Source of the DNA: Truepera sp.
Lineage (GTDB): Bacteria; Deinococcota; Deinococci; Deinococcales; Trueperaceae
DNA length: 64,000 bases
Reading direction: 5' to 3'
Assembly: GCA_032027045.1 (NCBI GenBank)
Contig: JAVSMU010000001.1
Span: forward strand, 2,506,620-2,570,619
The notes under the pieces were generated by a model that worked only from the letters and a program-made list of their open reading frames with translations, ran no database searches and was not told where the DNA came from. Numbering within the stretch: position 1 is the stretch's first letter; every line of letters begins with the position of its first letter. The position numbers and the translations under genes are program-made. Shown in pieces: positions 49,931 to 55,005 of the stretch.

Positions 49931-51145
49931 ATGACCGACCAACAGCCCGTTCCCGCCACCACCGAGCTCGCACGTGGCACGCCCCTCAAGTACCTCGACA
50001 AGGCCCTCGGCGGCCTCCGGGACCTGGGGCTCGTGCCCGAGAACACGAGCAGTCAAGAAACGCCGATCGTCGCGCTCCTGAGCCAGATCTCTGACCTCGA
50101 CCGTGACCGCGTCGTGGCCATCACGCGCACCCTCGCGCAGGCGTCGCTGTTCAACGACGTGGTGCGCCAGCAGGTGGAGGCCATGCACGTCGCGACGCGC
50201 TACGAGGACCTCACCAAGTCGTTCAACAGCATCCGCGACGACGCGAAGATGATGGTCGACCAACTCGACGACGGCAAGCTGAGCACCTTCGAGCGCCTCG
50301 CCAACGTCTGGATGAAGGTCACCCGTGGCGACATCGCCAACCGCTTCGACAAGATCAAGAGCACCTACCTAGACGTCACCAAGGACGCCCAGGACCAGAT
50401 CCAGCGCGAGCACGCGATCCTCGAGGCCTACCGCGACTTCCGCGGCGCGCTCAAGGAGTCCGAGGTACTCGCGTTCGAGGTGCTGAAGAAGGGCGAGGCC
50501 GAGCTGGAAGCGGCCAAGGCGGCCGTCAACGAGTCGATGGCCGCCGTCGACGCCTACCAGGGCGAGGACCTGGCCGAGCGCGCCCGGCTGGAACTGGCGC
50601 GTGACGAGAAGGTCCGCGCTTTGCAGCTCACCGACAAGCGCTACCAGATCGCCAAGGACCTGTCCGACAACCTCACCATCTCGTACAACACGTCCGAGGT
50701 CGTGATGGCGCGACTCATGCAGACCAACACCGCCAAGGAGCGCGTGCGCGCGCAGGCCGTGTCGTTCTTCAGCACCAACGAGACGGTGCTGACCGCGCTC
50801 ACGGCGACCTTCACGGGCCTATTCGGCCTCAACGAGGCCACGCGCAGCCTAGACGCCATGACGAAGGGCGTGAGCGACTCGCTCGACACGCTCTCCGACA
50901 TCGGGGGCAAGGTGCAGGAGGCCGCCCTGAAGGCGGGCTACGGTCCGACCGTGCGTGCCGAGTCGGTCAAGCGTCTGGTCGACTCGGTCGTCAACTACCA
51001 GGAGCGCTCGCTCGAGATCATCGACGAGATGCGCGAACAGGCCACCAGCAACGCCGCCGAGATCCGCACGGCCGTCGAGGACGGTAAGCGCCGCCTCGCG
51101 CGCCTGGCGGAACAGGGGGCGACTCTGACGACCACCGATGGCTGA
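49931..51145 (+). CDS. Cytoplasmic coiled-coil protein of unknown function (gene 1 of a three-gene module)
   Basis: 404 residues, no signal peptide. Almost entirely helical with heptad-rich stretches about 120-255 and 340-395. A short hydrophobic segment about 275-300 (VLTALTATFTGLFGLNEATR) might touch a membrane but is weak. I do not recognise it; it vaguely recalls TelA-like helical proteins. The next gene starts inside its last codons (8-nt overlap), tying expression together. Confidence 0.75.
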   Translation: MTDQQPVPATTELARGTPLKYLDKALGGLRDLGLVPENTSSQETPIVALLSQISDLDRDRVVAITRTLAQASLFNDVVRQQVEAMHVATRYEDLTKSFNSIRDDAKMMVDQLDDGKLSTFERLANVWMKVTRGDIANRFDKIKSTYLDVTKDAQDQIQREHAILEAYRDFRGALKESEVLAFEVLKKGEAELEAAKAAVNESMAAVDAYQGEDLAERARLELARDEKVRALQLTDKRYQIAKDLSDNLTISYNTSEVVMARLMQTNTAKERVRAQAVSFFSTNETVLTALTATFTGLFGLNEATRSLDAMTKGVSDSLDTLSDIGGKVQEAALKAGYGPTVRAESVKRLVDSVVNYQERSLEIIDEMREQATSNAAEIRTAVEDGKRRLARLAEQGATLTTTDG

Positions 51146-52052
51146 CGCACCGGGCCCGAGCGGGGCGCCCAGACCAGCGCCCCCGCCCCTGGATGACGTC
51201 ATGCTCGCCATGGACGTCGTCGACACGCTGCGCCACCGCGAGCGGCTCGTGCAGACGGAACTGGCCTCGGACGGCCGCGACGAGGCCATGCTCGAGAGCC
51301 TGCGGAGCATCTACGCTTCGCAGGGCATAACCGTCAGCGACGAGGTCCTCAAGCAAGGCGTCGAGGCCCTCGCGGAGGGACGCTTCGTCTACGAGGCGCC
51401 GGCGCGGCGGCCCGAAACGCGGTGGGCGTACGTGTACGTGAACCGCGCCAAGTGGGGTCGGTTGCTCCTCGCGCTGTTCGTCGTGGGGGCCTTGGTGTTC
51501 TACGGCTACGACCAGGTCTTCAGGGCCCCGCACCGCGCGCTGGTGAACGACGTCGGCCGCGTGCACGCCACGGTCCTCGCCGAGTCGAGGGACCCCGCCG
51601 CCACGGCGCGCGCCGAGACCCTCTACTCCCTGGCCACCACAGCCCTGGCGAAGGGCGAGGACGAGGAGGCGCGCAGCTCGCTCGCCTCGCTCCGGACCCT
51701 CGAGGCGCAGTTGCAGGCGTCTTACACGCTGCGGATCGCCGCCGAGACCACCGGGGTGTGGCGCGTTCCCGACCTCAACACCGAGGCGGCGAACTACTAC
51801 ATCATCGTCGAGCCCATCGACCGTAACGGCAAGAACATCGCCATCGACGTCACCAACGAAGAGACGGGCAAGACCGAGCGCGTCAAGAGCTTCGGCCTGC
51901 GGGTCTCGGACGCCACCTTCGAGGAGATCAGGCGCGACAAGCTCGACGACGGCATCATCCAGCGCGACGTTTTCGGCGAGAAGCAGGCCGGCTTCTTGCA
52001 GCCCGAGTACTACTTCGACACCACCGGCGCCGCCATAACGAGTTGGGACTGA
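51138..52052 (+). CDS. Single-pass membrane protein (possible DUF6384) (gene 2 of the module)
   Basis: 304 residues. Cytoplasmic helical N-terminus (1-110) with DDVMLAMDVVDTLRHRERL and LRSIYASQGITVSDEVL, one transmembrane helix (about 112-130, LLLALFVVGALVFYGY), then a 170-residue outer domain ending in a beta-rich region (NYYIIVEPIDRNGKNIAIDV). The N-terminal pattern reminds me of DUF6384, from memory only. Stop and next start overlap as TGATG. An envelope role is inferred from topology. Confidence 0.75.
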   Translation: MADAPGPSGAPRPAPPPLDDVMLAMDVVDTLRHRERLVQTELASDGRDEAMLESLRSIYASQGITVSDEVLKQGVEALAEGRFVYEAPARRPETRWAYVYVNRAKWGRLLLALFVVGALVFYGYDQVFRAPHRALVNDVGRVHATVLAESRDPAATARAETLYSLATTALAKGEDEEARSSLASLRTLEAQLQASYTLRIAAETTGVWRVPDLNTEAANYYIIVEPIDRNGKNIAIDVTNEETGKTERVKSFGLRVSDATFEEIRRDKLDDGIIQRDVFGEKQAGFLQPEYYFDTTGAAITSWD

Positions 52053-53668
52053 TGATCAGCGGTAGCAAGACCCTCGAAGGCCTGGTGCAGGCACTGCAGC
52101 AGGAGCAGGCACGCACCAGCCAGTTGGACTCGTCCCTCAACCGCAGCAACGACGAGCTGCTCGCCATCGACGCCAAGCGCGTGGCCGAGCTGGGGCGCCT
52201 CGCCCAACTGCGCCTGCGTTACCTGGCCAGCAAGGACGCCAGGGTCGAGGACACGACCGACGAGCAGGTGCTCAAGTTCATCGCGCAGCGCGACGCCGCG
52301 TACCAGGACGTCCGCCGGCGCCAGGCGCAGCACGATGCCGACTTGGCGGCGCTCGAGGAGGCGCGGGCGGCCGCCCAAGACGAGCTCGGCGCCGCGATGC
52401 AAGCGGTCGAGGACGCCGAAGCCGCCACGCAGCAGCGCCTGGGGGCCGACCCCGCCTACCAGCGGCAACTCGAGGCAGCCCACGAGGCCGACCGCGTTGC
52501 CCAGAAGGCCGACGCCAAGGCGACCCAAAGCGAGAACGAGCAGGCGACGAAGGGCGAGGCGTACCGCGCCGACCCGCTCTTCTCGTACCTGTGGCGCAGG
52601 AAGTACGGCACCGTGGAGTACCGTCCGGGCGGCTTAGTCTTCGCTCCGCTCGTGCGCTACCTGGACGGGCGGGTTGCGCGCATCTGCTCGTACATGGACG
52701 CGCGCGCCAACTACGCGCGCCTGCTCGAGATACCGGTGCGTCTGCGAGAGCACGCCGCGCACAAGGCGGCGGCCGCCGAAGCCGCGCACGCGGAACTCGA
52801 ACGCCTCGACCTGCAGGCGAGGGAGGACGACGGGATCGGCGCCCTGGATGCCCGGCGCACCGCCGCTCAGGCCAAGGTGGACGAGCTGGACGCCAAGATC
52901 GCGGCCAAGGCCGCCGAGGGCCAACAGATCCAAGAGGCCCTCGGACGCTTCGCGCAAGGCCAGGACAGCGACTACCAGAACGCCACCGAGTTCCTCCGCA
53001 ACGAGTTCGGCCGCACGCCCATCGACGTGCTGCGCGCCGGCGCCCTTGCGACCCCCACGCCCGAGGACGACCTCGTGGTGGCGCGACTGGCCCAGCTCTC
53101 GAGCAAGCGTGAGGAGCTGGCGGCCAGCGTCGACGAACTGCGCGCCGCCGCCGAGGCCAGCCGCCGGCGCCTGCAGGAGCTCACGAAGCTGCGGTCGGAT
53201 TTCAACCAGGCCGGGATGGCCCAGCCCAACTCGTCGTTCCGTGACGGGCAAGCGATAAGCACCGGCATCACGCAGTACCTTGCCGGCATGCTCACCGCGC
53301 AGGCGCTGTGGCAGCTCTTCAACCGGCAACGGCAGGTGACGAGCGGCAACGTCGACCCCACCTTCGGCTCGGGCGGCTTCGGTCGCGGGACGGTCTGGGG
53401 CGGCGGCCGGCCGCCGAGGGGCGGCGTGAACCAGGGCATCGACGTCCTGGGGTCGATCCTCGACGCGGTCGCGCGCTCGCAGTCGCACTCGAGTGGGCGG
53501 CCGAGCGGCGGCGGGTTCGGTGGCGGCTCCAGGCCGAGCGGCGGCGGGTTCAAGCCTAGTGGTGGCGGCTTCAAGCCGAGCGGCGGGTCGAAGCCGAGTG
53601 GCGGCTCGCGCCCAAGTGGCGGCAGCATGCCCAAGCGGGGCGGGTTCAAGACGGGAGGGAAGTTCTGA
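52052..53668 (+). CDS. Coiled-coil protein with Gly/Ser/Pro/Lys-rich repeat tail (gene 3 of the module)
   Basis: 538 residues. Long coiled coils at about 5-160 and 225-385 around a globular block (YLWRRKYGTVEYRPGGLVF ... RICSYMDARANYARLLEIPV, about 178-232). The last 57 residues repeat PSGG(G/S) units with Phe-Lys or Arg/Lys between, similar in style to YgcG-like tails. No signal peptide or transmembrane helix. Start ATG 52052 preferred to TTG 52043. Unrecognised; acts presumably with the two preceding proteins. Confidence 0.75.
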   Translation: MISGSKTLEGLVQALQQEQARTSQLDSSLNRSNDELLAIDAKRVAELGRLAQLRLRYLASKDARVEDTTDEQVLKFIAQRDAAYQDVRRRQAQHDADLAALEEARAAAQDELGAAMQAVEDAEAATQQRLGADPAYQRQLEAAHEADRVAQKADAKATQSENEQATKGEAYRADPLFSYLWRRKYGTVEYRPGGLVFAPLVRYLDGRVARICSYMDARANYARLLEIPVRLREHAAHKAAAAEAAHAELERLDLQAREDDGIGALDARRTAAQAKVDELDAKIAAKAAEGQQIQEALGRFAQGQDSDYQNATEFLRNEFGRTPIDVLRAGALATPTPEDDLVVARLAQLSSKREELAASVDELRAAAEASRRRLQELTKLRSDFNQAGMAQPNSSFRDGQAISTGITQYLAGMLTAQALWQLFNRQRQVTSGNVDPTFGSGGFGRGTVWGGGRPPRGGVNQGIDVLGSILDAVARSQSHSSGRPSGGGFGGGSRPSGGGFKPSGGGFKPSGGSKPSGGSRPSGGSMPKRGGFKTGGKF

Positions 53669-53718: not shown

Positions 53719-55005
53719 ATGCGCCGCAAGATCGGCGCCGTGCCCGGCGCCGTCGTCTACACCGGCCCGCAGCGTGATTACGGGGCGCACCTACAACTCA
53801 TCCACTACCAGGAGGACTCGCTAGAGGAGACCGAGGTCTCCGACATCGCGAGCCTGCCTAAGCTCCTCGAGGCTCCCGGAGTGCACTGGCTGAACGTGGT
53901 AGGCGTGCACGACACGAAGCTGCTCGAGAACCTAGGACAAGTGCTGGGCCTGCACCCGCTCACGGTCGAGGACCTGGCGAGCCTGGGACAGCGCCCCAAG
54001 ACCGAGGAGTACGAACACTACCTCTTCATGGTCTTCCGCATCCTCACCCGCCACGGCGTCCCGGTCACCACCTCCGAAGAGCAAGGTGCTCAAGGTCGTG
54101 GTTCGGCGCCCGGCGCGCGAGCCGCGGATCCGGCGGCGGCCGAGGCTCCAGGCGCGGCCACCCCCGCCACTGGCCCAGCAACCCCCGCCCCAGGCCCGGC
54201 CACCCCCGCCACTGGCCCCGCGGCGGCAACCCCCACCCGAAGCCCGGCAGCTCCCGCCAAGCTGGTGCAGCTGGAGCCATCGGCGTCCGCCGGCACGGTC
54301 GGCCACGACCTGCTCCACAGCGAGCAGTTCTCCCTCGTGTTGCGAGAGGGCCTGCTGGTCACGTTCCAGGAGCTCGAGAGGGACCCGTTCGAGCCGCTGC
54401 GAGAGAGGTTGCGGAAGGGCGCCGGGCGGCTCAGGAAGATGGGCGCCGACTACCTCGCCTACACGCTCATCGACCTCGTCATCGACCAGTACTTCGAGGT
54501 GGTGGAGGCCTACGGTGACGACCTGGAGGCCATCGAGGAGAAGATACTGCGGGGCCCCGAGCGCGACTCGCTCGAGCGCGTCAACGACCTGCGCCGCGAC
54601 CTGCTGGTGGTGCGCCGCGCAGTCTGGCCCCTGCGTGACGTGATGGCGTCGTTGCAACGCAAGGATCAGGCATACTTCTCGCCCGAGGTATCGAACTACC
54701 TGCGCGACGCGCACGACCACGCCGTGCAGGTCATGGACGCCGTGGAAACGCAGCGCGAGCAGCTCACCAGCCTGCACGACATCTACCTCACGCTGCTGAG
54801 CGTGCGCATGAACGACGTCATGAAGGTCCTGACGATCATCGCGACCATCTTCATCCCGCTCACCTTCTTGGCGGGCATCTACGGCATGAACTTCAAGTAC
54901 ATGCCCGAGTACCACTGGCGCTGGGCGTATCCAGCCCTGTGGCTGGTCATGCTGCTGTTGGGAGGGGGCATGCTCGCGGCCTTCAGGCGCCGGGGGTGGT
55001 TGTGA
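53719..55005 (+). CDS. corA: CorA-family magnesium/cobalt channel with Ala/Pro-rich insertion
   Basis: 428 residues. Cytoplasmic alpha/beta domain, long helix (about 250-360) and two C-terminal transmembrane helices with the selectivity motif YGMNF (388-392). Odd: residues about 118-175 are a low-complexity Ala/Pro/Gly/Thr insertion (ATPATGP repeats) within the N-terminal domain, encoded by 21-nt DNA repeats. Mg2+ or divalent uptake otherwise as usual. The 50-nt gap after the module gene has no terminator, so it may be co-transcribed. Confidence 0.92.
   Translation: MRRKIGAVPGAVVYTGPQRDYGAHLQLIHYQEDSLEETEVSDIASLPKLLEAPGVHWLNVVGVHDTKLLENLGQVLGLHPLTVEDLASLGQRPKTEEYEHYLFMVFRILTRHGVPVTTSEEQGAQGRGSAPGARAADPAAAEAPGAATPATGPATPAPGPATPATGPAAATPTRSPAAPAKLVQLEPSASAGTVGHDLLHSEQFSLVLREGLLVTFQELERDPFEPLRERLRKGAGRLRKMGADYLAYTLIDLVIDQYFEVVEAYGDDLEAIEEKILRGPERDSLERVNDLRRDLLVVRRAVWPLRDVMASLQRKDQAYFSPEVSNYLRDAHDHAVQVMDAVETQREQLTSLHDIYLTLLSVRMNDVMKVLTIIATIFIPLTFLAGIYGMNFKYMPEYHWRWAYPALWLVMLLLGGGMLAAFRRRGWL
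54156..54218. repeat. Three 21-nt tandem repeats inside corA
   Basis: Copies 1 and 3 (54156-54176, 54198-54218) are identical; copy 2 (54177-54197) differs at a few sites. Each encodes ATPATGP or ATPAPGP. Period is a multiple of three, so length changes keep the frame. Confidence 0.85.

What the first reader, a model, noticed from the sequence alone, without database searches (positions are those of the whole stretch)
49931..53668. Uncharacterised three-gene module: coiled-coil, single-pass membrane and coiled-coil/glycine-repeat proteins
The three genes overlap at both junctions (8 nt and 1 nt), so their products are made together. Two large soluble coiled-coil proteins flank a membrane protein with a sizeable outer domain; the last has a 57-residue PSGG repeat tail. 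None matches a family I can name with confidence (the second may be DUF6384). The architecture fits a membrane-linked scaffold or stress-responsive assembly. corA follows without a terminator and may belong to it.
Basis: partly seen in the sequence, partly recalled or inferred. Interest (0 to 1): 0.65.

Follow-up and report, generated by a model that had tools for sequence, protein, structure and literature searches.

The report
Conserved three-gene membrane module, function unknown
Three neighbouring genes of unknown function always travel together, in the same order, across four bacterial lineages, large plasmids and one giant virus of bacteria, so they very probably make one membrane-anchored protein machine that nobody has described.

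Summary
Three overlapping genes (49931-51145, 51138-52052, 52052-53668) form a tight unit. Only the middle one belongs to a known family (PF19911/DUF6384, E 6e-102). P1 and P3 match nothing credible in Pfam, NCBIfam, PHROGs, PADLOC or PDB.

The order P1-P2-P3 holds in all 80 related genome loci wherever the contig reaches, in Trueperaceae, Gamma- and Alphaproteobacteria, Planctomycetota, Pseudomonas and rhizobial megaplasmids, and in jumbo phage phiR1-37 (g190-g191-g192). Flanking genes are not conserved. corA follows only within the window's own genus, so it is not part of the module. The PSGG repeat is a local feature; the conserved tail element is a C-terminal motif, GGF[RK]TGGxF.

P2 is an N-in, C-out single-pass membrane protein. 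One relative has its outer domain as a separate lipoprotein. P1 is all-helical, with 60% or more identity across phyla over its whole length.

The likeliest mechanism is an inner-membrane-anchored assembly protecting or remodelling the envelope, working like PspA or TelA modules. This is inferred; membership in TelA and PspA was tested and not met. No stress promoter was found. The function is untested anywhere, and DUF6384 occurs in no paper of the held library.

The parts
49931..51145 (+). P1: 404-aa all-helical soluble protein; 60-88% identical over its full length in relatives; no Pfam, NCBIfam, PHROG, PADLOC or PDB family
51138..52052 (+). P2: DUF6384 (PF19911), single-pass membrane protein, N-in/C-out
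   Evidence: Pfam 6.2e-102; topology
51189..51437 (+). P2 cytosolic N-terminal domain (residues 18-100); invariant LDDVMLAMDxVDxLR; most conserved part of P2, presumed docking site
   Evidence: found alone with a TM in planctomycetes
51444..51518 (+). P2 membrane-spanning helix (about residues 103-127)
   Evidence: KD19 peak at 109; helix 103-149 in the model
51525..52049 (+). P2 outer domain: helical bundle plus C-terminal alpha/beta domain (residues 195-304) without a convincing solved match
   Evidence: pLDDT about 94-98, Foldseek PDB best E 0.5; stand-alone lipoprotein copy in L081
52052..53668 (+). P3: 538-aa mostly coiled-coil protein with basic Gly-rich tail; no named family
53492..53665 (+). 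P3 PSGG-rich tail (residues 481-538); repeat not conserved elsewhere
53639..53668 (+). P3 C-terminal motif GGFKTGGKF plus stop; conserved as GGF[RK]TGGxF (FSTSDSF-like in Pseudomonas and phage); the only such site in this genome

Best explanation
A self-contained, horizontally mobile three-gene operon makes one inner-membrane-anchored assembly. Shown: the three genes are inherited as a unit in fixed order; P2 crosses the membrane once, with the conserved N-domain in the cytosol and an alpha/beta domain outside; P1 is helical and constrained over nearly its whole length; P3 ends in a conserved short C-terminal motif. Inferred: P1 self-assembles and docks on the cytosolic N-domain of P2, P3 cross-links or caps this scaffold, and its F-x-T-G-G-x-F end is a binding tag. 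Inferred and least certain: the assembly protects or remodels the cell envelope under an insult sensed by the outer domain of P2. It would then work like PspA/PspBC or TelA/XpaC modules without being homologous to them. That would also explain why megaplasmids and a lytic jumbo phage carry it. The confidence given is for the whole statement including the envelope role; for 'one conserved module, corA excluded' alone it is about 0.97.
For: P1+P2 in 80 of 80 loci, P3 next in every one where the contig reaches. The same trio is in all Trueperaceae carriers examined, gammaproteobacterial genomes, plasmids and phiR1-37. Pfam alone assigns phage g191 to DUF6384 at 4.7e-26. P1-P2-P3 distance matrices correlate at r 0.80-0.85. 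Planctomycete copies nest among gammaproteobacterial ones with 100/97 support, which suggests transfer as a unit. Topology: positive-inside in 94 of 97; an L081 paralogue of the outer domain has a lipobox (LVALAGC; P2 profile 3e-66). P1 invariants span residues 22-386. The C-terminal motif is unique to P3 in the genome.
Against: No experiment, expression or interaction data were found. No stress-sigma or SOS site is enriched upstream. P1 has no significant sequence kinship to PspA or TelA, and the P2 outer domain has no solved relative that would name its ligand. Distribution is patchy (18 of 39 Trueperaceae, 17 of 369 gamma, 2 of 289 alpha), so it is dispensable. A purely structural role or a mobile-element conflict role fits most of the same facts.
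Confidence: 0.42

Rival explanations
1. Mobile-element conflict module: defence, superinfection exclusion or counter-defence. The membrane protein senses infection or conjugation at the envelope, and the helical P1 with P3 executes a membrane event.
For: Carried by at least ten megaplasmids and a lytic jumbo phage; patchy and transferred across phyla. g190-192 are not marked as structural proteins in the phiR1-37 record, while neighbours are.
Against: No PADLOC match; no recurrent neighbours of any kind around chromosomal copies; P1 is exceptionally conserved, whereas arms-race proteins usually diverge.
Confidence: 0.22
2. Remote branch of the TelA (toxic-anion-resistance) systems: P1 a diverged TelA, P2 playing the part of its membrane partner.
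For: Foldseek against viral models lists three TelA/tellurite proteins at probability 0.91-0.99. Profile-profile score 33.5 over 301 colinear columns exceeds all 40 block-shuffled decoys (max 28.0) and reversed controls (16).
Against: No PF05816 match in P1. hhalign probability is only 13% and an unrelated coiled-coil pair (P1-P3) scores the same 33.7. TelA proteins do not rank at the top with the P1 profile, nor P1 with the TelA profile. TM-scores are 0.31-0.36.
Confidence: 0.14
3. Cytoskeletal or spatial scaffold (polymer positioning DNA, plasmid or membrane sites) rather than a stress system.
For: Uniform conservation along P1 fits a homopolymer; P3 is a long coiled coil with a basic, probably disordered tail (pI 11.9 for residues 396-538); large replicons carry it.
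Against: No nucleotide-binding family or cytomotive fold found; no recurrent partition neighbours; most carriers are ordinary chromosomes; P2 invests in a conserved outer domain.
Confidence: 0.12
4. Helical membrane-inserting or pore-forming system: P1 segment 279-340 enters the membrane when triggered.
For: The strongly conserved, charge-poor FFxTNExVLTALxAxFTGxxGL-GYGPT stretch is the low-confidence part of the P1 model. Some alpha-pore-former chains appear among the PDB hits (7a0g, 2nrj, 6h2f).
Against: All those hits have E > 0.1 and TM of 0.40 or below; helical bundles match promiscuously. No TM-grade hydrophobicity in P1 (1% of members).
Confidence: 0.06

Closest known systems
PF19911 DUF6384 (Pfam family of unknown function)
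   Same: P2 is a full-length member (E 6e-102, profile positions 5-308 of 308)
   Different: Pfam describes only P2; the partners P1 and P3, the phage copy, the topology and the split or lipoprotein variants were not found described in the held literature (0 papers name DUF6384)
TelA / KlaB toxic anion resistance family PF05816 (with XpaC)
   Same: About 400-aa helical cytosolic protein beside another gene; patchy on chromosomes and plasmids; weak fold resemblance
   Different: No sequence match either way. TelA is absent from this genome, and the four Trueperaceae with TelA lack DUF6384
PspA/IM30 phage-shock system
   Same: Helical cytosolic protein plus inner-membrane partners is the general layout (from general knowledge)
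   Different: PspA_IM30 scores far below its cut-off and only on P2 (13.2 vs 33.9 bits); no PspBC-like partners; no psp-type sigma-54 site upstream
phiR1-37 g190-g191-g192
   Same: The same three genes in the same order; 42% identity for P1; g191 is DUF6384; g192 ends in FSSSDSF like the Pseudomonas plasmid P3 proteins
   Different: P2 has an extra helical insert (440 aa); g192 is recognisable mostly by position and C-terminal motif (profile E 9e-4); deposited without a function

Membership tests
PF19911 DUF6384 (P2) | Score over the Pfam gathering cut-off along most of the model | tested here: met
   341 vs 25 bits, positions 5-308 of 308
P1-P2-P3 module (defined here) | All three genes adjacent, same strand, same order | tested here: met
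   80 of 80 for P1+P2, P3 wherever sequence reaches; plasmids and phage as well
P1-P2-P3 module (defined here) | P3 ends in the FxTGGxF-type motif | tested here: met
   GGFKTGGKF at the C-terminus; 79 of 89 relatives end in F
P1-P2-P3 module (defined here) | corA as fourth member | tested here: not met
   corA next to the module only in the same genus
TelA (PF05816) | Score over the gathering cut-off (30 bits) | tested here: not met
   0 matches for P1 and none in this genome; profile searches both ways not significant
TelA (PF05816) | Same fold | tested here: inconclusive
   Three TelA models at probability 0.91-0.99 but TM 0.31-0.36; hhalign probability 13%
PspA/IM30 | PF04012 match | tested here: not met
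   Only P2, 13.2 vs 33.9 bits; none in P1 or P3
PspA/IM30 | ESCRT-III-like polymerisation on membranes | not testable with these tools
   needs purified protein
Known anti-phage defence system | PADLOC-DB model match | tested here: not met
   best E 0.52, 7.4 bits
Envelope-stress regulon | Stress sigma or SOS site upstream | tested here: not met
   0-1 of 80 upstream regions, as in controls

The most novel reading that the evidence does not exclude
A new class of bacterial membrane machine: a mobile, self-assembling helical coat (P1) anchored by DUF6384 and organised by a coiled-coil protein whose C-terminal F-x-T-G-G-x-F tag is recognised by a partner, shared between chromosomes of several phyla, megaplasmids and a jumbo phage.
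Probability: 0.3. Interest if true: 0.82.

Novelty: categorically new. Interest (0 to 1): 0.6.

Why it matters
Two protein families in it (P1, P3) are absent from the main family libraries although P1 keeps 60% or more identity across phyla. A fixed trio that moves between phyla, megaplasmids and a lytic giant phage must do something useful on its own. The result makes it testable: it defines the unit, excludes corA, gives the topology, and names lab-tractable carriers (phiR1-37, Bradyrhizobium, Pelagibacterium, Devosia, Pseudomonas megaplasmids). 'Categorically new' means that no described system fits; it does not claim a demonstrated new mechanism.

Tried and rejected
(1) corA as fourth gene: rejected by synteny. 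(2) TelA membership of P1: recalled resemblance and Foldseek hits tested with profile searches, hhalign and decoys; not significant enough. (4) Weak Pfam hits across the P1 and P3 families (ApoLp-III, TetR_C_24, SH3BP5, BAR) are inconsistent coiled-coil noise. (5) Regulatory sites upstream of P1: nothing above controls; no promoter or real terminator by consensus; no Rfam element. (6) Conserved neighbours beyond the trio: none. (7) IMG/VR copies other than phiR1-37 lie beside an integrase and ordinary chromosomal genes and are probably Pseudomonas host DNA. (8) SkaA of pMPPla107 (a hypothetical megaplasmid protein with a known phenotype) might be in this module, but the primary paper is not held and its locus could not be checked. 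(9) First IMG/VR scan with the narrow P1 alignment found nothing. (10) Names such as 'merozoite surface protein 3b' or 'cell surface protein' in public records probably reflect coiled-coil similarity and are not informative.

Full report
WHAT IS THERE. P2 is a full member of PF19911/DUF6384 (6e-102). P1 and P3 have no credible match in Pfam, NCBIfam, PHROGs, PADLOC or the PDB, singly or as family profiles.

THE UNIT. A genome-wide search with P2 returned 80 loci from Trueperaceae, Gamma- and Alphaproteobacteria and Planctomycetota. P1 lies upstream in all 80. P3 follows in 75, and the other five are cut by the contig end or hold only a truncated start of P3. One locus (L075) has an extra gene of about 560 codons between P1 and P2, and two others have one between P2 and P3. 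The trio also holds in ten further Trueperaceae loci and in the gammaproteobacterial genomes, wherever contigs reach. It is present in the megaplasmid regions examined from Pseudomonas, Bradyrhizobium, Rhizobium and Methylorubrum. Yersinia jumbo phage phiR1-37 carries it as g190 (42% identical to P1), g191 (Pfam DUF6384, 4.7e-26) and g192, in the same order, and g192 ends in the same FSSSDSF as plasmid P3 proteins. It was found in no other phage of 50,697. phiR1-37 is reported to lack chimallin (PMC10299810), so the module is not tied to the phage nucleus.

WHAT IS NOT PART. Clustering of all flanking ORFs gave no gene family that recurs beside the module beyond near relatives. corA follows P3 in the window and in same-genus genomes, but in another genus of the family hisG follows directly and elsewhere no corA is near. 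The PSGG repeat is local; relatives have other Gly/Ser/Arg-rich tails that share only the last nine residues.

DISTRIBUTION AND TRANSFER. 18 of 39 Trueperaceae genomes (the window's own included) have full DUF6384, and no other Deinococcota does. 17 of 369 gammaproteobacterial genomes carry P1. 2 of 289 alphaproteobacterial and 3 of 245 planctomycete genomes carry full DUF6384. It is absent from 14 model genomes, which probably explains the lack of literature. In the P1 tree the two planctomycete copies nest among gammaproteobacteria with 100/97 support. P1, P2 and P3 distances correlate (r 0.80-0.85; permutations at most 0.19), as expected for co-inheritance, though vertical descent alone also produces such correlation. 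Codon G+C is native, so the copy is not an obvious recent arrival here.

ANATOMY. P1: all-helical model, pLDDT 72.5, with a long hairpin 135-208/214-314. Its most conserved segment (about 279-340, FFxTNExVLTAL...AGYGPT) is partly low-confidence, which suggests a partner or self-interface (inference). Identity of 60-88% over the whole length across phyla, against medians of 43% for P2 and 31% for P3, suggests that nearly every surface is a contact (inference). P2: N-domain with invariant LDDVMLAMDxVDxLR, one TM helix, helical bundle and a C-terminal alpha/beta domain at pLDDT about 94-98. Foldseek found no PDB chain better than E 0.5, and the best were small helix bundles, so the alpha/beta domain may be a new fold. 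Topology is N-in. In L081 a paralogue of the outer half alone follows P2 and begins with a lipobox (LVALAGC), independent evidence that this domain lies outside the cytoplasm. In two planctomycetes the N-domain plus TM occurs alone. P3: coiled coil, acidic up to residue 395, then a basic tail (pI 11.9), a conserved central DPLFxYLWxRxYG...LDGxVA...NY..L..IP.RL region, and the C-terminal motif.

HOW IT MOST LIKELY WORKS. Shown: one operon unit, mobile, membrane-anchored, with an outer domain and inner helical partners. Inferred: P1 assembles on the inner face through the P2 N-domain, and P3 bridges and presents its C-terminal tag. The purpose most consistent with a dispensable, transferable module used by bacteria, large plasmids and a lytic phage is protecting or remodelling the envelope, comparable to PspA or TelA modules in layout. 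I put this at about 0.4. A conflict/defence role (0.22), a remote TelA branch (0.14) and a cytoskeletal scaffold (0.12) remain open. TelA kinship was examined closely: Foldseek viral hits and a colinear 301-column profile alignment that beats 40 shuffled decoys are suggestive, but a coiled-coil control pair scores equally and direct profile searches fail, so P1 is not filed as TelA. No stress promoter was found, so 'stress-responsive' is not established.

VERDICT. The finding is a real, undescribed three-gene system. It is new in the sense that no described system fits, with the mechanism untested.

Noticed in passing
L081:8906-9556 (+): 217-aa lipoprotein-like paralogue of the P2 outer domain (lipobox LVALAGC) inserted between P2 and P3 in a Hyphomonadaceae MAG; evidence for P2 topology and for a split or duplicated sensor domain.
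   Followed up: yes
L186:1474-1845, L187:1414-1824: Planctomycete ORFs of 124-137 aa with only the DUF6384 N-terminal domain plus TM, followed in both by a gene for a small multi-TM membrane protein, without P1 or P3 nearby: a second, different context for this domain.
   Followed up: partly
L096 / W03:C1:558372-559502: The P1 match in the Methylorubrum extorquens AM1 megaplasmid was reported with one in-frame TGA; it may be a broken copy or a match running past the gene's end.
   Followed up: no
window 53719-55005: CorA here carries a long Ala/Pro/Thr-rich insert (about residues 125-190) in the cytosolic domain.
   Followed up: no
L094, L153, L154: In Pseudomonas megaplasmids the module is followed by dcd (dCTP deaminase), and in two of them preceded by a StiP-domain cysteine protease and peptidyl-tRNA hydrolase: a shared megaplasmid core or a functional link.
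   Followed up: no
L011, L012, L018, L021, L027: A BON-LysM (YgaU/Kbp-like) gene lies within 3 kb of the module in five gammaproteobacterial loci, in L011 directly upstream of P1.
   Followed up: partly
Trueperaceae genomes: TelA (4 genomes) and full DUF6384 (18 genomes) never co-occur among 39 Trueperaceae; hypergeometric p about 0.07, suggestive only. One gammaproteobacterium (G260) has both.
   Followed up: partly
L173-L176: IMG/VR Pseudomonas prophage contigs appear to contain host DNA past the integrase; the module there is probably chromosomal, so its label 'viral' misleads.
   Followed up: partly
G724 (L181, L182): One alphaproteobacterial genome carries two complete copies of the trio.
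   Followed up: no
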